A stretch of DNA of 64,000 nucleotides from NCBI GenBank assembly GCA_049969715.1, contig JBMFOH010000002.1:1-64000 (forward strand), read 5' to 3'. The DNA is from JBMFOH01 sp049969715 [NCBI: bacterium] (lineage in GTDB: Bacteria; DUMJ01). A program made the translations under genes and the position numbers. Shown here in pieces: positions 21,769 to 36,191 of this stretch. How positions within the stretch are numbered: the stretch's first letter is position 1; every line of letters begins with the position of its first letter. The notes under the pieces are model-generated. The model was not told the origin of the DNA, made no database searches, and was given only the letters and a program-made list of their open reading frames with translations.

Positions 21769-22573
21769 TTACCACCTCTTTAATTCTTTTTACCAACTCT
21801 ATATGGAGATTATGTCCACCCTTCACTGCTATTACTGTAGCATTAATTCTTGCTCCTAAGAGGTAAAGGTCTCCTATAAGGTCAAGTAGTTTATGCCTTA
21901 CCAACTCATTATGATATCGCAATGGGACAGAGTATCCATTGCTTCCTATTACTATAGAATTATCAGAGCTACCTCCTTTAGCTAAACCTGAAGCGAGTAA
22001 TACTTCTATTTCCTCTTCAAAACCAAAGGTTCTAGCGGGAGCGATCTCATTTTTGTAAGCAGTGCTACTATGCTTATAGAGAAACCACTGCTTACCTATA
22101 TAGGGAAACTCCACAGTATAATAAATAGAAAGAGTAGAATTAGGAATAGCTATAATGCCCTTTTCACCGTTCAATATCCATATGGGTTCAGGGAGATCTA
22201 TAGTCTTCCTTTCTCTATCTAGATATTCTATTCCGGCTTCCTCTATCTTTTCTACAAAAACCTTAGCACTCCCATCGCAAGAAGGAATTTCTTGCCCTTC
22301 TACTAATATCTCTGCATTATCTATTTCCATTCCGTTAAGGGTAGAAAGGATATGTTCTACTGTATAAATAGAATGCCCATTAGAACCAAGTATAGTGCCC
22401 CTATTAGTGGAAGTAACCAACTCTACTCGAGCCTTTATAACCTCCTTATTTTTAAAGTTAAATACAATTCCACTATCAGCATCAGCAGGAGAGATTGTAA
22501 TCTCACTTTCCTTACCTGTATGAAGACCTATACCCGTAATCCTTACAGCCCTTTTAAGGGTTGTCTGCCTCAT
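21746..22573 (-). CDS. lpxC: UDP-3-O-acyl-N-acetylglucosamine deacetylase
   Basis: A 275-residue zinc enzyme, the committed step of lipid A synthesis. The N-terminal IGLHTGKES loop is at about 15-23. Zinc ligands are His in YTVEHILSTL (about 73) and His/Asp in VRHKLLDLIGDL (about 231-235), and the catalytic His is in KGGHNLHIEL (about 258). Length is slightly below the usual ~300. It overlaps lpxD by 20 bases upstream and fabZ downstream. Confidence 0.95.
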   Translation of the reverse strand: MRQTTLKRAVRITGIGLHTGKESEITISPADADSGIVFNFKNKEVIKARVELVTSTNRGTILGSNGHSIYTVEHILSTLNGMEIDNAEILVEGQEIPSCDGSAKVFVEKIEEAGIEYLDRERKTIDLPEPIWILNGEKGIIAIPNSTLSIYYTVEFPYIGKQWFLYKHSSTAYKNEIAPARTFGFEEEIEVLLASGLAKGGSSDNSIVIGSNGYSVPLRYHNELVRHKLLDLIGDLYLLGARINATVIAVKGGHNLHIELVKRIKEVVNGKERII

Positions 22574-23555
22574 CTTTTTTTAATCTCCTTATTAACTCTG
22601 GAAGTCTCAATAAAGCTGACTGCGCTTTCAGCCACTCTCTATGCGGTCTAGCAGGAGTCCCAGATATTATAGACCTTGGGGGGATATCCCCTATTATCCC
22701 TGTTTGAGCCATAGCAATAGTTTCTTCTCCAACTTTTATATGGTCAGCTATCCCAACCTGCCCTCCAAACATACATCTATCCTCTATTTCAACGCTTCCA
22801 GCTATTCCTGTCTGACCAGCTATTGCTACATCTTCTCCTATCGTTACATTATGGGCTATAAGAACCAAGCTATCAATCTTTGTTCCCCTTTTTATAATAG
22901 TAGACCCTAGAGTAGCTTTATCTACTACACTGTTAGCACCAATTTCTACATCATCCTCTATAACAACATTTCCAAGATGTGGAATACGAATATAATGATT
23001 CCCATCCTTGTAAAATCCAAAACCCTCCTTACCTATTACTGAACCAGCATGAATTTTTACCCTCTTACCTATAGTAGTATTGTCTTCTATTATTACATTA
23101 TAACCTATTAAAGATTTCTCTCCAATAACTACATTATCTCCAATCTTCGACCCAGCCATAATTACTACTTCTTCACTCAGGATCACATTATTTCCTATTA
23201 CTACGTATGGGCCCACGTAGCAACTAAAAGGGATAGAAGTATTCTCTCCTACTATAGCGGTTTTATGTACACCTTTATACTCCTTTTTCTTTTCAAACAA
23301 CCCAAGTAATCTTGGCATTGCTGCCCTAGGGTCTTTTACCCAAATATATGGTTTCCCTGTAGTTAATCCTTCCTTTAGAACGATAGCACAGGCATCTCCC
23401 TTTTCTGCTATCTCTAAAAAATCTTCTGTAAGTATTATACATATATCTGTCTTTTTTGCCAGATTAGGAGTATTGACTCCCAATACTTCAAGATCTGGAG
23501 GACCAAAGAGTTGCCCATTTATCTCTTTAGCTATATCTTCTAAACTATATCTCAT
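22554..23555 (-). CDS. lpxD: UDP-3-O-(3-hydroxyacyl)glucosamine N-acyltransferase
   Basis: A 333-residue acyltransferase. An N-terminal uridine-binding domain (about 1-100) precedes a left-handed beta-helix of hexapeptides. The catalytic His region is DSLVLIAHNVTIGEDVAIAG (about 225-244), with GIADHIKVGEE nearby, and a short C-terminal helix follows. It adds the N-linked acyl chain in lipid A synthesis. It overlaps ompH by 4 bases. Confidence 0.95.
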   Translation of the reverse strand: MRYSLEDIAKEINGQLFGPPDLEVLGVNTPNLAKKTDICIILTEDFLEIAEKGDACAIVLKEGLTTGKPYIWVKDPRAAMPRLLGLFEKKKEYKGVHKTAIVGENTSIPFSCYVGPYVVIGNNVILSEEVVIMAGSKIGDNVVIGEKSLIGYNVIIEDNTTIGKRVKIHAGSVIGKEGFGFYKDGNHYIRIPHLGNVVIEDDVEIGANSVVDKATLGSTIIKRGTKIDSLVLIAHNVTIGEDVAIAGQTGIAGSVEIEDRCMFGGQVGIADHIKVGEETIAMAQTGIIGDIPPRSIISGTPARPHREWLKAQSALLRLPELIRRLKKDEADNP

Positions 23556-24019
23556 TTCCTGATAGCCTTTATTACATCGTCAGTAATATCAATTCCTCCA
23601 TAAATGATAGAATCCTTCTTTAACACTATGTCAATACCTTTAGCCTTAGCAATATTCTTTGTTGCCTGTTCAATATCATTAAGCATGGGAGAAAGAAGGT
23701 CCTGCCATTTCTTTGCTACAGCAGCGTTCAACTTCGCCTCATAATCAGCTTTAATTTGCTGTGCCTCATTAGCGCTTTTATCCTTTATTGCTGCATCTAA
23801 CTGTTTCTGATAATCGTCTTTGGTTTTTAAAGCAAAACTATTAAGCGCACTCCTAGCTTTATCTATGTCAGGATGTGCCTCTAAAGCCTTATTTATATCC
23901 ACATATCCTATCTTAAATGTATCTAAAGCAAATCCACTTCTAGGTAAATTTAATATCCAAAAAGAGATACCTAAAACACCAATAACTGAAATCAAAATTA
24001 TTATAGATTTTATCTTCAT
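23552..24019 (-). CDS. OmpH/Skp-family periplasmic chaperone
   Basis: A 155-residue protein. Residues ~5-25 are a hydrophobic signal or anchor segment, followed by KIGYVDINKALEAHP, the start of the Skp fold, and a helical coiled-coil body (about 55-125) ending in GIDITDDVIKAIRK. It is expected to hold unfolded outer-membrane proteins on their way to the BamA-like protein encoded 21 bases upstream. No lipobox is seen. Confidence 0.85.
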   Translation of the reverse strand: MKIKSIIILISVIGVLGISFWILNLPRSGFALDTFKIGYVDINKALEAHPDIDKARSALNSFALKTKDDYQKQLDAAIKDKSANEAQQIKADYEAKLNAAVAKKWQDLLSPMLNDIEQATKNIAKAKGIDIVLKKDSIIYGGIDITDDVIKAIRK

Positions 24020-24040
24020 CTAACAATCTCACTCCTATCT

Positions 24041-25951
24041 CTAGAATTTTTCTCCTATACTAAAATAGAATCTTCCTTGCCAATCTGTACTACCCCAACC
24101 ATAATCCATTCTTATAACCCCCATAGGAGGAACCATTACTCTTAGCCCTAATCCTATTCCCATTTTAAGGTCAGCAGGAGCTACTGTTTCATTATTATCC
24201 CATCCATTTCCTAAATCCCAAAATATAACCCCAGTCAGATTCTGATCATATTTCCATCTATATTCAAAGCTTATCAACTCCGTAATATCAGCCTTTTTCC
24301 AATTTTCAGGTAATCCCCTTATAGAATTAAAACCTCCCACGGTATACTTTTCTATATAGGGAATACTTCCTAGTCCTACCCCCCACATATAATTTACTGC
24401 CAAAATTTCATCCTTGGATATAGGTTCATACCAACGCAAATCTGCATTTAATTTGGTGAAGTTAAAGTTACCTCCTAAAACACCTCCACCTTCTTCTATA
24501 CTAACAGTGTGATAGACTCCATTCTGTGGGCTAAAGATAATGTCTCTAGTATCTTTAGATGCACCTAAGGTCACTGAATTTGATTCTCCTGAGCTTATGA
24601 AATCCGGTAGGATATATCCCTCTTTGGGTTGATATTGAAAGTTATTGAAAGAAATTCCCACTATCCCATACAGATTATTTCCTACCAACTTATTGATGTT
24701 TACCTCAAAGCTTTTCACATCCTCATTATAACTTACCGACTCATCATTTATTGTCTCAGTATAACTTCCCTTCTTCCATACAATATTACTATTTAATGTG
24801 GTATTAGTATTAGCTAAATAGGGTTCTGTATAGCTTAATGAGAGACCTTCTGTAGATAGGCTTAAACCAAGATTTAGAGATAACCCAAGTTTTCTCCCAG
24901 TTCCTAGAAGGTTGGAGTCACTTAATCCAAATGATATAGAAAACCCTTCAGAAGTAGAATAAGTAAGAGAACCACTAAGTTGGCCCGTAGGCTGTTCAAC
25001 TACATTTACTACTAATATCACCTCTCCAGGAATTTCGGCATTTTTAAGACTTACACTGAGGTCAGAAAAATAACCCAGGTTATATATCTTCTGGAGGTCT
25101 TTTTGTAGTGCATTTACATTCAATACGTCTCCAGGCTTTATGTTCATTTCTCTTAAAATGACATAATCCTTTGTCTTTTGGTTACCCTTTACCTCTATAC
25201 TAGCAATCTTTCCTTCTCCTATCTCAAAAGTTAGAACCCCTTTACTATCTACTGACGCGTTGAGAACTATAGCTGCCACATAACCCTTTTCTTTGTAGAT
25301 ATCTTGAATCTTTATGGCGATCTCTTTTAAAAGATTAGTAGAAACGACCCTACCTTTATATATATCTAATTCTTGACTAAGAATCGATGAGTTTATTACT
25401 GAGTTTCCAATAAAGTTAAATCCTGAAACTACAGGACCCTCTGTGATAATTATGGTCAATACTCCATCGCTAGACATATTAAATTGGAAATTAGCTGCTG
25501 CATATCCTCTTTCTCTGTACAGCCTTGCTATATTCTCTATGTCCTTCTTTAAGGTATTAAGATTTAGAACCTCCCCCTCCTTTAATGTTATTAGATTTCT
25601 TATTTCGTCCAGTTTTACCTCTTTATTACCAGTTAACTCTATTGATTTTATTACCGGATTTTCCTTTACATTTACTATTAATATATACTTATTCTCTTCT
25701 ACTTTGACATTTCCATCTACGTTAGAAAACCATCCGGTATCTAAAAGTCTCTGTAGACCAGCCTTTAGAGCATCTTTATCTATCTCATCACCAACATTTA
25801 AGATCTTAAGAATCTCGTCCTTACTTATATTCACATTCCCTAGAATATCGATCTTAGTAATATGAACCTTATCCTGTGATAGTGCTAATGGCACAACCAT
25901 AAAGATCAACATTACTATCCCTATACCTATTACTAGTGACTTCTTAAGCAA
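24041..25951 (-). CDS. bamA: BamA-family outer-membrane assembly protein with four POTRA domains
   Basis: A 636-residue Omp85 protein. The signal peptide (LLKKSLVIGIG to ALSQ) is followed by four POTRA repeats of 70-75 residues each (starting near HITKIDILGN, IKSIELTGNK, VSGFNFIGNS, IASIEVKGNQ). A 16-strand barrel follows (from about 325), with the conserved strand GGFNSIRGLPEN and a C-terminal Phe in GRFYFSIGEKF. E. coli BamA has five POTRAs. The start is TTG 25951, 6 bases after AGGAGG; the upstream ATG would add 13 charged residues before the signal peptide. It inserts barrel proteins into the outer membrane. Confidence 0.93.
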   Translation of the reverse strand: MLKKSLVIGIGIVMLIFMVVPLALSQDKVHITKIDILGNVNISKDEILKILNVGDEIDKDALKAGLQRLLDTGWFSNVDGNVKVEENKYILIVNVKENPVIKSIELTGNKEVKLDEIRNLITLKEGEVLNLNTLKKDIENIARLYRERGYAAANFQFNMSSDGVLTIIITEGPVVSGFNFIGNSVINSSILSQELDIYKGRVVSTNLLKEIAIKIQDIYKEKGYVAAIVLNASVDSKGVLTFEIGEGKIASIEVKGNQKTKDYVILREMNIKPGDVLNVNALQKDLQKIYNLGYFSDLSVSLKNAEIPGEVILVVNVVEQPTGQLSGSLTYSTSEGFSISFGLSDSNLLGTGRKLGLSLNLGLSLSTEGLSLSYTEPYLANTNTTLNSNIVWKKGSYTETINDESVSYNEDVKSFEVNINKLVGNNLYGIVGISFNNFQYQPKEGYILPDFISSGESNSVTLGASKDTRDIIFSPQNGVYHTVSIEEGGGVLGGNFNFTKLNADLRWYEPISKDEILAVNYMWGVGLGSIPYIEKYTVGGFNSIRGLPENWKKADITELISFEYRWKYDQNLTGVIFWDLGNGWDNNETVAPADLKMGIGLGLRVMVPPMGVIRMDYGWGSTDWQGRFYFSIGEKF

Positions 25952-25999
25952 GTTACACCTCCTACTACGTTTTGTAATGAGTATATGCAATTTCTATTC

Positions 26000-27249: not shown

Positions 27250-29048
<1,799 letters not shown>

Positions 29049-29918
29049 TTATTCTTCCCTTTCTATCGCTGCCTTACTTGAAGATACCTCTATAATCTCT
29101 GTGGTTATAGAGGATTGTCTCAACCTCTGATAAGTCTTATATAGTGATTCTAGTAATTCTTTTCCATTTTCATATGCTTGATGCATAGCAACCCTTCTTG
29201 CTGCATACTCACTTGTTATAGCCTCTAAGAATACCCTATAGAGAGTTACGCCAATAAAAAGCGAAAGTAATTCTCTCAAGATATCCTCTATAGAGGGTTC
29301 AAATATATAATTTTCAAATCTACCTACCTTTTCTGTCTCTCTAAATTGAATTGGCATTAAAGTAAAGTCAACTGGCATATACACAAAGGCATTCCTAAAT
29401 AGAGTATAAATCACAGAGACCTCTTTATATCTACCAGTTACAAAATCATCCTGGATCTTATTTGAAATGTTATAGACGGTATCAAAACTTACTATAGGAC
29501 TTATAGAATTCGCTTCTATTATATTATATCCTTTATTATATAGGGTCTTACCTACTCTTGACCCATACACAATAATCTCTGTCTCCTGCGAAGCCCTTAT
29601 ATATTCTTGGACCTTTCTCACTACATTCCCTAAGTAACCACCACATAAACCTCTTTCTCCACCTACCACTATCAGTAGATTTCTCTTAGCTTCAGCTGGA
29701 ACTTGCAATAGAGGAAAGGATTGTCTATCTTCTTTACTAACACCGGCAACAAGGTCTTTTAATAGATTCATAAGGAGATCACTATAAGGAGTAATAGTCT
29801 TAAGTCTGGCTTGACTTCTCCTTAATCGAGAAGCAGCTATAAGCTCAGTAGAACGTATTATCTCAGAAATATGATTTATATTATTTATATGTTTCTTAAG
29901 CCTCTGCTGAGATTGCAT
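29049..29918 (-). CDS. atpG: ATP synthase F1 gamma subunit
   Basis: A 289-residue rotor shaft. The N-terminal helix (RLKKHINNINHISEIIRSTELIAASRLRR in pieces, residues 6-34), the Rossmann-like middle with VGGERGLCGGYLGNVV (about 85-100), and the C-terminal helix with SEYAARRVAMHQAYENG (about 238-254) are all intact. It starts with a TAATG one-base overlap with the fused delta-alpha gene. Confidence 0.96.
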   Translation of the reverse strand: MQSQQRLKKHINNINHISEIIRSTELIAASRLRRSQARLKTITPYSDLLMNLLKDLVAGVSKEDRQSFPLLQVPAEAKRNLLIVVGGERGLCGGYLGNVVRKVQEYIRASQETEIIVYGSRVGKTLYNKGYNIIEANSISPIVSFDTVYNISNKIQDDFVTGRYKEVSVIYTLFRNAFVYMPVDFTLMPIQFRETEKVGRFENYIFEPSIEDILRELLSLFIGVTLYRVFLEAITSEYAARRVAMHQAYENGKELLESLYKTYQRLRQSSITTEIIEVSSSKAAIEREE

Positions 29919-31972
29919 TACTCGCTAGAAAATGTCCTCTTAAATTCAAATATTATATTAGACAAACTCTTACTGTTCTCATCTGTAAGCCCTTTATCTT
30001 TTATATCCTTCTTTAAATTTTCATAATTTTGATTTATAAACTTGATAAGTTCATCCTGGAAGTGAGGTATCTCCTCTAGAGCTATTTCATCCATATAACC
30101 TCTAGTCACAGTAAAAAGTATAATTACTTGATCTATAACCTCCATAGGGCTATATTGAGGTTGCTTTAAGACTTCCCTAATTCTAATCCCTCTTTCTATT
30201 TGATTTTTTGTAGCTGAATCTATATCAGTGGATACCTGGGCAAAGGTTTCTACCTCTCTATATTGTGCCAAGTCTAATCTTAATCTTCCAGATATCTCCC
30301 TCATAGCTTTTATTTGAGCACTTCCTCCAACTCTAGAGACAGAAAGGCCGACGTCTACAGCTGGTCTTATTCCTTCATAAAAGAGTGATGAGTCTAGATA
30401 TATCTGTCCATCAGTTATAGAAATAAGGTTGGTAGGAATATAAGCAGATATATCACCTAATTGAGTTTCTACAATAGGAAGTGCAGTAAGAGATCCTCCC
30501 CCTAGATGACTATTCAACTTTGCAGATCTCTCTAGAAGCCTGGAATGGAGATAGAATATGTCTCCTGGATAAGCCTCTCTTCCGGGAGGACGTCTCAAAA
30601 GGAGGGAAATCTCTCTATATGCTTTGGCATGTTTAGAAAGGTCATCATATATTATGAGTACATCTTTCCCCTGATACATAAACTCTTCACCTATAGCGCA
30701 TCCTGAATAAGGGGCTATATAGAGCAAAGAAGCAGGCTCATTTGCAGTAGCAGAGATAACAATAGTATAATCTAAAGCCTCTCTTTCCTTTAGTACTCTA
30801 ACAATATCTACTACGGTAGTTGCCTTTTGTCCTATTGCTACATATATACATATAACATTTTCATCCTTCTGATTAATAATAGTATCAATTGCTATTGCAG
30901 TCTTACCTGTCTGCCTATCTCCTATAATAAGTTCCCTTTGGCCTCTTCCTATAGGAATAAGTGCATCTATTACCTTTAAACCTGTCTGTAAGGGAGTATT
31001 TACCGGTTCTCTCTCTACTACATTCGGAGCTAAGGCTTCTATCTTCCTATATCTATTTGTTGTAATAGGAGGTCCTCCATCAAGAGGCCTCCCCAAAGGA
31101 TCAATCACTCTACCTTTCAATTCTTCTCCTACAGGTACAGTTAACATCCTCTGAGTGCTTCTGATTATATCCCCCTCTGGAATCTCATCCGGAGAACCTA
31201 AGAGTATTATTCCAGTTTCCTCTTCCTCTAAGCTCATTACCATCCCAGGGATATTATTTGAGAATAAAACCATTTCTCCATATTGGCTATTTTTTAAGCC
31301 AGAGGCAACGACTACACAGTCCCTTATACTCTTTACCCTTCCTGTAGAAAGCCTCAGCGGTTTCGGAAGGAACCCTTCAACCTTATCTTTTAAATCCTTT
31401 ATTACTCCTTGAAAAGAATCCTTAGCCTCCACAAGGGATAACTCGTCTCGAATGAGATCTAACTGGGCCTTTAGGGAGACATCTATAGTTTCATCTTGAA
31501 GCTCTATCCTTACCCCATTTATTATATTTGGGTCTACTTCAGTAAGAATCACTACCTTTCTATTTAGAACTTCTGAAAGATAACTTCCTATCTCTTTTAT
31601 CTTCTCATCTGAAACATTAAAAGGTAACTTTACTCTGACTTTTAAAGGCAGACTTGTCTCTACCAGATCAATAAATCTCGTATATACCTGTTCTATAAGC
31701 TCTTCCTCTCCATCTTCGATTATCTTAGAGATGTAACCTAGGACTTTAGAAGGTAATATACCAGTAAATCTTTCTCTAATGGTTCGTTTCTTTACTTCAG
31801 GGGTTAGACTTTTATCAAAGAAAGCCTTATTCAAATCGTAATTGTGAGTAATATCTTCTATAAAGATCCTTAAAGACTCTCTATATACATCTATAGCCTC
31901 ATCCTCTAAAGCTAATTGCAACAGCTCATTGCTAAGGATATCTACACTGTCAGAAATTAATACCTCACTCAT
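29918..31972 (-). CDS. atpA: Fused ATP synthase delta (OSCP) and alpha subunit
   Basis: A single 684-codon frame. Residues ~1-178 are a delta/OSCP subunit: an N-terminal six-helix domain, then INGVRIELQDETIDVSLKAQL, the usual end of delta. Residues ~185-684 are a complete alpha subunit: SIRDCVVVASGLKNSQYGEM, the P-loop IGDRQTGKTAIAIDTI (about 347-362), GSLTALPIVETQLGDISAYIPTN and the C-terminal helical domain. No stop and no ATG lies near the junction. A GTG (V in SLVEAK) exists there but without a Shine-Dalgarno. No separate atpH is present in the operon. Delta normally occurs once per F1 and alpha three times, so the fusion is unexpected. It overlaps atpF by 8 bases (ATGAGTGA). Confidence 0.93.
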   Translation of the reverse strand: MSEVLISDSVDILSNELLQLALEDEAIDVYRESLRIFIEDITHNYDLNKAFFDKSLTPEVKKRTIRERFTGILPSKVLGYISKIIEDGEEELIEQVYTRFIDLVETSLPLKVRVKLPFNVSDEKIKEIGSYLSEVLNRKVVILTEVDPNIINGVRIELQDETIDVSLKAQLDLIRDELSLVEAKDSFQGVIKDLKDKVEGFLPKPLRLSTGRVKSIRDCVVVASGLKNSQYGEMVLFSNNIPGMVMSLEEEETGIILLGSPDEIPEGDIIRSTQRMLTVPVGEELKGRVIDPLGRPLDGGPPITTNRYRKIEALAPNVVEREPVNTPLQTGLKVIDALIPIGRGQRELIIGDRQTGKTAIAIDTIINQKDENVICIYVAIGQKATTVVDIVRVLKEREALDYTIVISATANEPASLLYIAPYSGCAIGEEFMYQGKDVLIIYDDLSKHAKAYREISLLLRRPPGREAYPGDIFYLHSRLLERSAKLNSHLGGGSLTALPIVETQLGDISAYIPTNLISITDGQIYLDSSLFYEGIRPAVDVGLSVSRVGGSAQIKAMREISGRLRLDLAQYREVETFAQVSTDIDSATKNQIERGIRIREVLKQPQYSPMEVIDQVIILFTVTRGYMDEIALEEIPHFQDELIKFINQNYENLKKDIKDKGLTDENSKSLSNIIFEFKRTFSSE

Positions 31973-32462
31973 TAATAGTACTCACATCCTTAAGATACTT
32001 TTCAAGAACCTTTTCTTTTAAGTCTTCCTGGCTTAAGATTTCGTCCTTAACTAGCTTAGTTGTGGCATCTAGAATGATCTCTACTATCTCCTCTTTAAAC
32101 TTTTCTATAGTATGTTTTCTCTCTAATACTATCTCATTTTGAGCCTTTTCTAGAAGAGACTGGGCTTCTCTATGTGCCGAATCTAAGATCCTACTCCTCT
32201 CTACTTCAGCCTGTTGCTTCGCCTTCTCTATAATCTCTTCAGCCTGGGACCGAGCTTCTTTCAACTGTTCCTCATACTGAGCCTTAAGAGATTCTAGATT
32301 AGCCCTCTCCTTTTCAATCTCTTCTAGACCGCTTTGAATCTTTTTTTGCCTCTTATCTATATAGGAAGCCAAGGGCTTATAGGCAAACCTATATATAAGA
32401 TATAATGTGACAACAAAGTTTATAATCTGAAATATAAAAGTAGGAAAGGTAAACTTTATCAC
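31965..32462 (-). CDS. atpF: ATP synthase Fo b subunit
   Basis: A 165-residue stator stalk. One N-terminal membrane helix (about 5-27, FPTFIFQIINFVVTLYLIYRF), then a long charged helix (about 40-160) for the peripheral stalk. Its C-terminal end should bind the delta domain, which here is part of the next gene's product. It overlaps that gene by 8 bases and atpE by one. Confidence 0.95.
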   Translation of the reverse strand: MIKFTFPTFIFQIINFVVTLYLIYRFAYKPLASYIDKRQKKIQSGLEEIEKERANLESLKAQYEEQLKEARSQAEEIIEKAKQQAEVERSRILDSAHREAQSLLEKAQNEIVLERKHTIEKFKEEIVEIILDATTKLVKDEILSQEDLKEKVLEKYLKDVSTINE

Positions 32463-32728
32463 TACTGTACCATCCCCACAAATGGATTAACAAACAAAAG
32501 GACTAAGGCTACTACAAGCATAAATATAACTAACGATTCTATAAATGCAAGCCCCAAAAGTAAGATAGTCATAATTGACCCTTGTGCCTCTGGTTGTCTC
32601 CCCAAAGATTCCATAGCCTTAGAGACTGCATTACCTTCTCCCAATGCTCCTCCCAATACTGCTATACCCATACCCCAACCTGCAGCAAGTACAGAAGCCA
32701 TAATTACTAATGCCTTACTAGTTAACAC
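32462..32728 (-). CDS. atpE: ATP synthase Fo c subunit with Na+-type binding site
   Basis: An 88-residue hairpin of two membrane helices. The polar loop is [11 protein letters not shown] (about 40-50). The ion-binding carboxylate is E64 in [10 protein letters not shown], followed by S65. In helix 1, E31 in GALGEGNAV occupies the place where Na+-type rings have Gln32 and the Fusobacterium ring has Glu32. This E...E-S pattern suggests a two-carboxylate Na+ site. The gene lies between atpB and atpF in the normal order. Confidence 0.95.
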
Positions 32729-32750: not shown

Positions 32751-33404
32751 TTATTCTTCCTCTATAGCACCTGCTATGTATAGAAGAGTAAGGAGAGAAA
32801 ATATAAATGCCTGGATAAGACCAGTAAAGAGCCCTAATAACATCATAGGGATAGGAAGTATAAGTGGAACTAGCATCACTAAAAGGGCTATCACAATCTC
32901 CTCTCCTATTATATTCCCAAAAAGACGGAACGATAAAGACACGGGCCTTACCAATTCCTCAAGAATATTTAAAGGTAAAAGGATAGGATTAGGTTCTATA
33001 TATTTTTTGAAAAAACGCCAACCCTTTTCTCTTATCCCTGCCACATAAGTAGAAGCTACCGCTACTATAGCTAAAGCTACAGTAGTACTTAGGTCTCTAG
33101 TAGGAGCATTAAACCCAGGGATAATCTCTATCCAATTGGAAAGGAGAATAAATATGCCTATAGAAAGAGCTAACGGAACGAATTGTTTACCTTTCTCCCC
33201 CATTACCTGCACTGCTATATTATCATAAAACTCTATAAGGGTCTCGAATAGAGACTGAATCTTACTCGGATATTCAGAAAGACTTCGAGCAAGGATCCAA
33301 CTAAATACAAATATTATCCCCATCACTACCCAAGTAGTAGTGACAGAGTCTGTTACAGGTATTCCTAATACCCAAAAAACTATCCTTGGTGCTATCTCTT
33401 GCAT
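32751..33404 (-). CDS. atpB: ATP synthase Fo a subunit
   Basis: A 217-residue membrane protein, on the short side for the family. The essential Arg lies in ELVRPVSLSFRLFGNIIGEE (about 150-169), and the last helix LIQAFIFSLLTLLYIAGAIEE carries the conserved Gln. It forms the ion half-channels beside the c ring. It overlaps atpI by 13 bases. Confidence 0.95.
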   Translation of the reverse strand: MQEIAPRIVFWVLGIPVTDSVTTTWVVMGIIFVFSWILARSLSEYPSKIQSLFETLIEFYDNIAVQVMGEKGKQFVPLALSIGIFILLSNWIEIIPGFNAPTRDLSTTVALAIVAVASTYVAGIREKGWRFFKKYIEPNPILLPLNILEELVRPVSLSFRLFGNIIGEEIVIALLVMLVPLILPIPMMLLGLFTGLIQAFIFSLLTLLYIAGAIEEE

Positions 33405-33748
33405 CTTAAGATTCTTAAGCCTCCTATTAAAAGTGTCAGAGGATATATAACTAATCCTATCAGTAAGCCTAATATACCTAACCTATTTATTATACCACAA
33501 AATAGGAATATAGATACCACTCCAATGATGATTACTACTCTAATAAGTGTACCCACACCAAACTTAATATGATCTAAAGGGGGTTCTCTATCCTTTAATA
33601 GTGTAAAGATAAGAGTCAAATCTAATATCCCAATAAAAATACCTATAAAGTATCCTAAAAGATATTCCTTCTTTATAAGGAAAAGAACTCCCAAAGGCAA
33701 AGCTGAAATAAAATAGGTTTTAAGTAATGTCAAGAATGTCTTATTCAT
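33392..33748 (-). CDS. atpI: AtpI-like ATP synthase assembly protein
   Basis: A 118-residue protein with four predicted membrane helices (about 8-25, 29-50, 66-86, 90-112), in the place where AtpI is found before atpB. AtpI-type proteins help c-ring assembly or ion homeostasis but are not part of the final enzyme. The start overlaps the previous stop (ATGA). Identification rests mainly on position and topology. Confidence 0.75.
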   Translation of the reverse strand: MNKTFLTLLKTYFISALPLGVLFLIKKEYLLGYFIGIFIGILDLTLIFTLLKDREPPLDHIKFGVGTLIRVVIIIGVVSIFLFCGIINRLGILGLLIGLVIYPLTLLIGGLRILRCKR

Positions 33749-33940
33749 TTTTTAAGTTGGTCATATATGCTCTTTAACCCTACATAAGCTCCCAAGAACA
33801 TAAAGAGGAGTCTAAATGAGTATCCAGTAAACAGTCTCTCATCAATAAATTTTCCCAAATATAACCCAACTAAAATAGAAGAGACTATTGTAAATCCTAT
33901 AGAGAAGGCGATTCCTATATACCACCATGTTTTATTCCTT

Positions 33941-33957
<17 letters not shown>
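33745..33957 (-). CDS. AtpZ/AtpI-family small membrane protein
   Basis: A 70-residue protein with two membrane helices (about 10-32 and 42-60) and the family-like segments GLYLGKFIDERL and GAYVGLKSIYDQLKK, typical of the small AtpZ/F0F1-I protein at the head of ATP synthase operons. The ATG at 33957 has GGAG about 9 bases upstream and lies inside the end of wecB; an earlier in-frame start would add 13 residues not seen in the family. Confidence 0.8.

Positions 33958-36191
<2,234 letters not shown>

What the first reader, a model, noticed from the sequence alone, without database searches (positions are those of the whole stretch)
29918..31972. Delta and alpha subunits of ATP synthase fused in one gene
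One continuous 684-codon frame holds a full delta/OSCP domain and a complete alpha subunit, and no separate atpH is in the otherwise normal operon. F1 has three alpha but only one delta, so the fusion would give three delta domains per enzyme unless two are idle, removed by a protease, or a separate alpha is made by internal initiation. Delta binds the alpha N-termini on top of F1, so the join is structurally plausible. I do not know of a described example; the mycobacterial b-delta fusion is different.
Basis: partly seen in the sequence, partly recalled or inferred. Interest (0 to 1): 0.85.

Follow-up and report, generated by a model that had tools for sequence, protein, structure and literature searches.

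The report
Natural delta-alpha fused ATP synthase
In this little-known bacterial lineage two parts of the ATP-making rotary enzyme, the anchor (delta) and a ring subunit present three times (alpha), are one protein, so each enzyme should carry three anchors and could be held by several stalks, like an engineered ATP synthase that makes ATP from weaker membrane gradients.

Summary
One 684-codon minus-strand frame (31972-29918) encodes a full delta/OSCP subunit joined through a short loop to a full alpha subunit, in an otherwise ordinary atp operon. It is not an assembly error: the three genomes held of the nearest phylum-level group carry the same fusion (68-70% identical), with no second delta found, and no in-frame start codon near the junction is shared by all four. 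Natural delta-alpha fusions are already in print: Ueno et al. [quoted passage not shown] The window's version differs: it keeps the domain, predicted folded and under purifying selection, yet changed where alpha normally docks (Tyr13 to Leu, hydrophobic 83 to Lys). Position 83 is polar in all three lineages found with full-length fusions, against 2 of 115 separate deltas. Best reading: the domain no longer caps F1 in the classical one-per-enzyme way, and more than one stalk can form. This is inferred and untested. Along the way I found a whole clade with b-delta-alpha triple fusions.

The parts
29918..31972 (-). fused delta-alpha subunit gene (atpHA), 684 aa
   Evidence: ORF; Pfam; NCBIfam; AlphaFold2 model mean pLDDT 88.3
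31652..31972 (-). delta N-terminal domain, residues 1-107, six-helix bundle
   Evidence: AF2 helices 2-24 (8-24 in the delta-alone model), 27-43, 45-52, 58-69, 75-86, 90-107, block pLDDT mostly 92-97; Foldseek to E. coli delta NTD 1abv TMt 0.76, rmsd 2.9, E 0.0034
31436..31645 (-). delta C-terminal domain, residues 110-179
   Evidence: OSCP match to 178; AF2 strands and helices; Foldseek to engineered fusion chain 9jc1_I over 69 columns, rmsd 2.3, E 0.0094
31415..31435 (-). junction loop, residues 180-186, pLDDT under 50 at 182-184
   Evidence: AF2; no gap in the four-sequence alignment here; dN/dS of residues 179-206 is 0.09-0.16 within the G001/G005/G006 trio
31376..31414 (-). alpha N-terminal helix, residues 187-199
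   Evidence: AF2 H187-199
29921..31357 (-). alpha body, residues 206-684 (beta-barrel, nucleotide-binding and C-terminal domains)
   Evidence: Pfam; VIA-align Z up to 59.2 to solved alpha chains
31965..32462 (-). atpF (subunit b), overlaps the fusion start by 8 bases
32462..32728 (-). atpE (subunit c)
32751..33404 (-). atpB (subunit a)
33392..33748 (-). putative atpI-position protein (no Pfam match), syntenic in relatives
33745..33996 (-). atpZ-like (Pfam ATPase_gene1)
29049..29918 (-). atpG (gamma)
27654..29045 (-). atpD (beta)
27250..27657 (-). atpC (epsilon)

Best explanation
The gene makes a true delta-alpha fused subunit, so each F1 (alpha3beta3) carries three delta domains. The delta C-terminal domain of each chain keeps the classical site for the b2 dimer. 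The delta N-terminal domain, which in ordinary enzymes sits once on the three-fold axis bound to alpha N-terminal helices and limits the enzyme to one stalk, keeps its fold but has lost groove residues that hold the alpha helix, so it no longer enforces one-stalk asymmetry. [quoted passage not shown] Shown here: the fusion, its conservation, no second delta found in the relatives, no shared internal start, the predicted fold, the residue changes and the selection. Inferred: three intact copies per enzyme, the kept b2 site, the loss of docking, the multi-stalk assembly and the energetic effect.
For: Fusion in 3 of 3 genomes held of the phylum-level group of G001, plus the window. PF00213 search of G001, G005, G006: one match each at E<=0.1, the fused one. 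No start codon shared by the 4 sequences at residues 160-243. The N-terminal domain is folded in the prediction and under purifying selection (dN/dS 0.08-0.19 within the G001/G005/G006 trio). In each of the 4 clade members it keeps 6 of 18 family-conserved residues; 0 of 63 separate deltas is that low (L188 set aside), while the C-terminal domain keeps 8 (window) or 10 (relatives) of 15. Residue 83 (aligned to E. coli Val79) is hydrophobic in 113 of 115 separate deltas and polar in all 6 full-length fusions of three lineages (K, T, Q); Tyr13 is lost in two of the three lineages; 0 of 115 separate deltas lost both (L188 set aside). Helices 1 and 5 are where OSCP binds alpha, largely by hydrophobic contacts (PMC4057687, passage). 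An engineered delta-alpha fusion without this domain forms up to three stalks and three a-subunits (PMC12229609). Natural b-delta-alpha chains with a separate b-like frame beside them suggest that per-alpha anchoring recurs.
Against: Ueno et al. attribute the one-stalk limit to this very domain, and the window keeps it, predicted folded and constrained. The altered groove could have co-evolved with an altered alpha helix and still dock. In the other two full-length-fusion lineages overall N-terminal retention is ordinary (G002 12 of 18, G330 11 of 18; 21 and 16 of the 64 rows are as low), so only position 83, and Tyr13 in G002, points the same way there; G330 keeps the Tyr and both keep Ala16. 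Position 83 was singled out because of a recalled E. coli residue, among the 46 positions asked for. The window's C-terminal domain also departs from consensus (8 of 15; 1 of 64 rows as low), and its contrast between domains is not extreme (12 of 64 rows show as much), though that of each of the three relatives is (1 of 64). Nothing here measures stoichiometry. The separate deltas are rich in Bacillota and related to each other, so the comparison is not a probability.
Confidence: 0.5

Rival explanations
1. Three fused chains but one stalk: one delta N-terminal domain still docks on the axis in a re-evolved way, the stalk attaches to that chain, and the other two delta domains are idle or structural.
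For: The N-terminal domain is kept, predicted folded and under purifying selection. Ueno et al. conclude that this domain restricts stalks to one. In G002 and G330 the domain is overall as well conserved as in many separate deltas.
Against: The groove position 83 is polar in all three full-length-fusion lineages and most N-terminal consensus residues are lost in the window clade. The other two delta C-terminal domains would still be able to bind b2, as in the engineered enzyme.
Confidence: 0.3
2. The chain is cut, or alpha is made separately, so that free alpha and delta assemble in the usual 3:1 ratio.
For: The junction loop (residues 180-186) is predicted flexible, pLDDT under 50 at 182-184. 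Each sequence has some in-frame GTG or TTG in the region, at differing places.
Against: No start codon shared by the four sequences near the junction; residues 179-206 are only 36% identical between window and relatives, with a shared DSF after the loop. No stop or frame change in four genomes. Cleavage itself was not tested.
Confidence: 0.14
3. Assembly or sequencing error that removed a stop codon.
For: None found.
Against: The same frame and gene order in G001, G005 and G006 at about 69% identity.
Confidence: 0.01

Closest known systems
Engineered Bacillus PS3 deltaDeltaN-alpha fused FoF1 (Ueno et al. 2025, PMC12229609; PDB chain 9jc1_I)
   Same: Delta C-terminal domain fused to the N-terminus of alpha in one chain; phmmer aligns window residues 120-681 to 9jc1_I.
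   Different: The engineered chain lacks delta residues 2-104; the window keeps an N-terminal domain, predicted folded. Multiple stalks are shown only for the engineered one.
Natural delta-alpha fusions lacking the delta N-terminal domain (Acidaminococcus fermentans, UniProt G4Q3K6, A0A1I2C5T3; named in PMC12229609)
   Same: Natural delta-alpha gene fusion in an atp operon.
   Different: N-terminal domain missing there according to the paper, present here. I did not fetch those records; 18 similar frames of other genomes were found.
Mycobacterial b-delta subunit (e.g. 7jg5_d, 9vkp_d)
   Same: Delta fused to another stator subunit; weak matches to the window delta domain (E 0.01-0.02).
   Different: Partner is b, not alpha; one b-delta per enzyme (recalled).
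Ordinary separate delta (atpH) and alpha (atpA), e.g. PS3 6n2y_I and E. coli 5t4o_L / 6oqr_W
   Same: Both domains homologous over nearly their full length.
   Different: Two genes; the conserved Tyr and hydrophobic groove residue are replaced in the window clade.

Membership tests
F-type ATP synthase alpha subunit (TIGR00962) | Score above curated cut-off over the full model | tested here: met
   724.5 bits against 484.45, model 10-502 of 503
ATP synthase delta/OSCP (PF00213) | Score above gathering cut-off over N- and C-terminal domains | tested here: met
   69.2 bits against 22.3, profile 9-172 of 172; Foldseek to full-length E. coli delta 6oqr_W E 6.9e-11, rmsd 8.3 over 171 columns, TM about 0.5
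Ordinary delta subunit | Encoded as a separate polypeptide | tested here: not met
   Single frame with alpha in four genomes; later cleavage of the protein not testable here
Ordinary delta subunit | Conserved residues of the alpha-binding helices 1 and 5 of the N-terminal domain | tested here: not met
   Tyr13 to Leu, Ala16 to Glu, hydrophobic 83 to Lys, Arg89 to Glu/Leu in the 4 clade members; that these very residues touch alpha is recalled for E. coli 11 and 79 only
deltaDeltaN-alpha multi-stalk class of Ueno et al. 2025 | Delta C-terminal domain and alpha in one chain | tested here: met
deltaDeltaN-alpha multi-stalk class of Ueno et al. 2025 | Delta N-terminal domain absent | tested here: not met
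   Six-helix N-terminal domain present and predicted folded
deltaDeltaN-alpha multi-stalk class of Ueno et al. 2025 | More than one peripheral stalk and a-subunit per enzyme | not testable with these tools
   Needs the purified enzyme
Mycobacterial b-delta fusion | b and delta in one chain | tested here: not met
   atpF is a separate 165-aa gene at 31965-32462

The most novel reading that the evidence does not exclude
A natural multi-stalk ATP synthase in which three retained delta N-terminal domains, freed from their classical docking, pack as a new three-fold cap or pack outward on F1, so that every alpha holds its own b2 stalk and a-subunit and the ion/ATP ratio is two to three times the usual. 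Together with NTD-less and b-delta-alpha fusions this would be a recurrent natural route to high ion/ATP ratios.
Probability: 0.3. Interest if true: 0.88.

Novelty: new variant of a known kind. Interest (0 to 1): 0.68.

Why it matters
F-type ATP synthases are taken to have one peripheral stalk and one a-subunit, with c-ring size setting the ion/ATP ratio. Ueno et al. showed by engineering that fusing delta to alpha can break this and proposed that nature does it too. The window and its relatives are natural fusions that keep the domain thought to enforce one stalk. They therefore make it testable whether the domain itself or its docking surface is what matters, and whether fusion can come before loss of the domain. 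The b-delta-alpha clade seen alongside makes several stalks hard to avoid unless chains are cut.

Tried and rejected
Internal start for a separate alpha: looked for in-frame ATG/GTG/TTG at residues 160-245 in four sequences; none between 160 and 243 is shared by all. In the window GTG181 is the only one listed before ATG234, and by eye no strong Shine-Dalgarno-like run stands before it.

A second atpH or atpA: PF00213 in G001, G005, G006, G002 and G330 rang over the cut-off only on the fused genes; G330 had two further matches at about 13 bits. The fusion protein used as query in G001 found, besides the fusion, five places of 25-31% identity, ATPase relatives such as beta. The window's own genome is not held, so this is shown for relatives only.

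Other long frames among the 59 genomes: G015, G047, G056 and G058 were suspected from the open-frame column, fetched, and do not appear among the frames with more than 60 residues before alpha. G389 was suspected the same way and is separate.

Taxonomic name: a recalled GTDB phylum name (JACIXR01) was searched in papers (one review listed, not read) and is not confirmed; the group is described only as the phylum-level group of G001 with three held genomes. A search for the MAG project gave none.

Shared ancestry of fused alphas: a FastTree tree put the window clade among NTD-less and b-delta-alpha fusions with weak support (0.5, and 0.787 for the next node). A careful IQ-TREE tree left its place unresolved and nested only L008 firmly among separate alphas. 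Starred branches force at least two changes of the full-length-fusion label, most simply two or more origins; gains and losses cannot be told apart by that count.

Whole-model fold search was filled by alpha chains, so the delta part was predicted and searched alone.

Frequency in Bacillota: 299 genomes were searched, 244 had a match, and the table of matches was cut; among the rows listed that reach into delta, only G002 has no stop through delta and alpha over the full length, and G250 and G448 show NTD-less frames.

Literature. Of the papers listed I opened four: PMC12229609 (abstract, all of Results, Discussion, passages) and PMC6131620, PMC5214741 and PMC4057687 (passages only). Only PMC12229609 was seen to describe delta-alpha fusions; I saw no description of a full-length delta-alpha or b-delta-alpha fusion. 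The library holds open-licence papers only. A JBC paper on the F1-binding surface of delta (recalled, Weber et al. 2003) is not held under the DOI I tried; the role of E. coli Tyr11 and Val79 is therefore recalled.

Full report
What is there. The minus-strand frame 31972-29918 has 684 codons and no internal stop. Residues 17-178 match OSCP/delta over nearly its whole profile, and the three alpha/beta domains match between 211 and 677; the alpha part passes TIGR00962 by a wide margin. Its ATG overlaps the end of atpF by eight bases, and the genes around it form an otherwise complete operon with no other delta gene seen. phmmer aligns the delta part to PS3 delta 6n2y_I from residue 15 to 178 and to E. 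coli delta 5t4o_L from 19 to 178.

It is not an error. Of 80 loci returned from genome contigs, L001 (MAG-58) carries the same fusion along its full length (69%). In a search of 59 genomes, G001 (that of L001) and relatives of it, G005 and G006 also carry it (68-70%, no stop inside). These three are all the genomes held for that phylum-level group. The gene order fumA-fumB-upp-wecB-atpZ-(atpI)-atpB-atpE-atpF-fusion-atpG-atpD-atpC-murA is the same in the window, G001 and G006; the G005 contig ends inside atpG. The names fumA, fumB, upp, wecB and murA are my labels from memory, not searched. That the window belongs to the same group is inferred from this. The PF00213 profile finds one delta in each of G001, G005 and G006, the fused one. 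Between residues 160 and 243 no ATG, GTG or TTG codon is common to the four sequences.

Structure. AlphaFold2 gives mean pLDDT 88.3: a six-helix N-terminal domain (block pLDDT mostly 92-97), a delta C-terminal domain, a low-confidence loop near 180-186, the alpha N-terminal helix 187-199 and the alpha body. The delta part alone (mean pLDDT 89.8) hits whole bacterial deltas (E. coli 6oqr_W, E 6.9e-11, but rmsd 8.3 and TM about 0.5), the E. coli delta N-terminal domain 1abv (TMt 0.76) and the delta part of the engineered fusion 9jc1_I (69 columns, rmsd 2.3, E 0.0094).

What is special in the N-terminal domain. Against a consensus of 64 non-redundant 'separate' deltas, the window and its three relatives each keep 6 of 18 conserved N-terminal residues; none of the 64 is that low (mean 0.75, minimum 0.39). 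The C-terminal domain keeps 8 of 15 (window) and 10 of 15 (relatives). One of the 64, L188, is really a cut-off fused frame of G260, so n is 63. Results against a simple story, from the same call: the window's C-terminal value is itself low (1 of 64 rows as low); its contrast between the domains is shared by 12 of 64 rows, whereas that of each relative is shared by 1; and in the two other full-length-fusion lineages N-terminal retention is ordinary (G002 12 of 18, G330 11 of 18; 21 and 16 of 64 rows as low). Core hydrophobic positions of helices 1, 5 and 6 are kept (17, 18, 20, 81, 84, 85, 93, 96, 100), but in the window clade Tyr13 is Leu, Ala16 is Glu, Arg89 is Glu/Leu and position 83 is Lys. 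In 115 separate deltas position 13 is Tyr in 112, and position 83 is non-hydrophobic in 2 (L154 Thr, L036 Gly); none has lost both. L008/G002 and L175/G330 carry Thr and Gln at 83; L008 also has Leu at 13, while G330 keeps Tyr. By alignment, window 13 and 83 correspond to E. coli delta 11 and 79 (13 lies just outside the aligned stretch). That these two contact alpha is recalled, and is why I singled out 83 among the 46 positions asked for. That helices 1 and 5 of OSCP bind the alpha N-terminus largely by hydrophobic contacts is in PMC4057687 (passage). The domain is nevertheless maintained: Nei-Gojobori dN/dS 0.08-0.19 within G001/G005/G006, against 0.09-0.12 for the C-terminal domain (dS is near or above 1 in several of these pairs and high or saturated in pairs with the window).

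Prior art. Ueno et al. 2025 (PMC12229609; Results and Discussion read) argued that the delta N-terminal domain, on the pseudo-three-fold axis, limits the enzyme to one stalk. They removed it, fused the delta C-terminal domain to alpha in Bacillus PS3, and saw 0, 1, 2 and 3 stalks in 15, 51, 26 and 8% of particles, about two stalks by gel, and an H+/ATP ratio of 5.8. They point to Acidaminococcus fermentans and two UniProt entries as natural fusions lacking that domain. The fusion as such is therefore known; one that keeps the domain is not described in the parts I read, and I saw none in the listings.

How common, and in what forms. Fused frames in fetched loci fall into three forms. Form I is full delta-alpha: the window, G001, G005, G006, G002 (and G260, whose contig ends after the junction) and G330. 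Form II is NTD-less delta-alpha: 18 distinct frames. Form III is b-delta(NTD-less)-alpha: of the 99 genomes searched around G003, G003 included, 35 have a place that matches the L026 query from residue 9 or earlier with no stop inside (my count from the table). Of these, 22 were fetched and seen as single frames of 737-790 aa. Pfam shows ATP-synt_B, OSCP 102-170 and alpha in L026, the only one so scanned. All 22 distinct loci have a separate b-like frame, matched with L026's own (23 ids, L115 repeating L026). In a careful tree of 65 alphas, L008 is nested among separate alphas on starred branches; starred branches force at least two changes of the form I label, most simply two or more origins; the place of the window clade and of G330 is unresolved. 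A FastTree tree placed the window clade with forms II and III with weak support.

Reading. Three fused chains per F1 follow from alpha3beta3 unless chains are cut; this is inference from established stoichiometry. [quoted passage not shown] Against this stands that nature has kept and constrained the domain, that the paper blames the domain itself for the one-stalk limit, and that two of the three lineages have an N-terminal domain that is ordinary overall. I put several stalks at about one half, one stalk with idle copies at about 0.3, and processing at about 0.14.

Noticed in passing
L026:3886-6138 and L116-L134, L189, L190: b, delta C-terminal domain and alpha fused in one chain of 737-790 aa, next to a separate b-like frame; 35 of the 99 genomes searched around G003 (G003 included) have such an unbroken match (my count), 22 seen as single frames. 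This would put a b on every alpha.
   Followed up: partly
L073, L136, L137, L139, L147, L153, L176-L179, L181-L187, L191: NTD-less delta-alpha fusions in several lineages, 18 distinct frames, like those named by Ueno et al.
   Followed up: partly
G263 (L191 on C13, and C19:2829-4313): One genome with an NTD-less fused alpha and also an alpha match of ordinary frame length (514 aa).
   Followed up: no
window 32462-32728: Subunit c has Glu in helix 1 (GEGNAV) as well as Glu-Ser in helix 2 (FIESLVIF), a two-carboxylate pattern that I recall from Na+-driven Fusobacterium c-rings.
   Followed up: no
G001:C37:22269-24603: Two adjacent frames (461 and 598 aa) at about 28-31% identity to the alpha query, by length a V/A-type ATPase B and A pair, in addition to the fused F-type.
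   Followed up: no
window 22554-25990: LpxD and an Omp85/POTRA (BamA-like) gene next to the gene I label murA: an outer-membrane lineage, although the loci listed with separate alphas are mostly from Firmicutes.
   Followed up: no
window, residues about 213-226 of the fusion: The alpha beta-barrel motif that reads GDGIARVYGL in an ordinary alpha part (L008) is IRDCVVVASGL here and similar in the three relatives.
   Followed up: no
window 33392-33748: Protein of 118 aa in the atpI position with no Pfam match, syntenic in the relatives.
   Followed up: no
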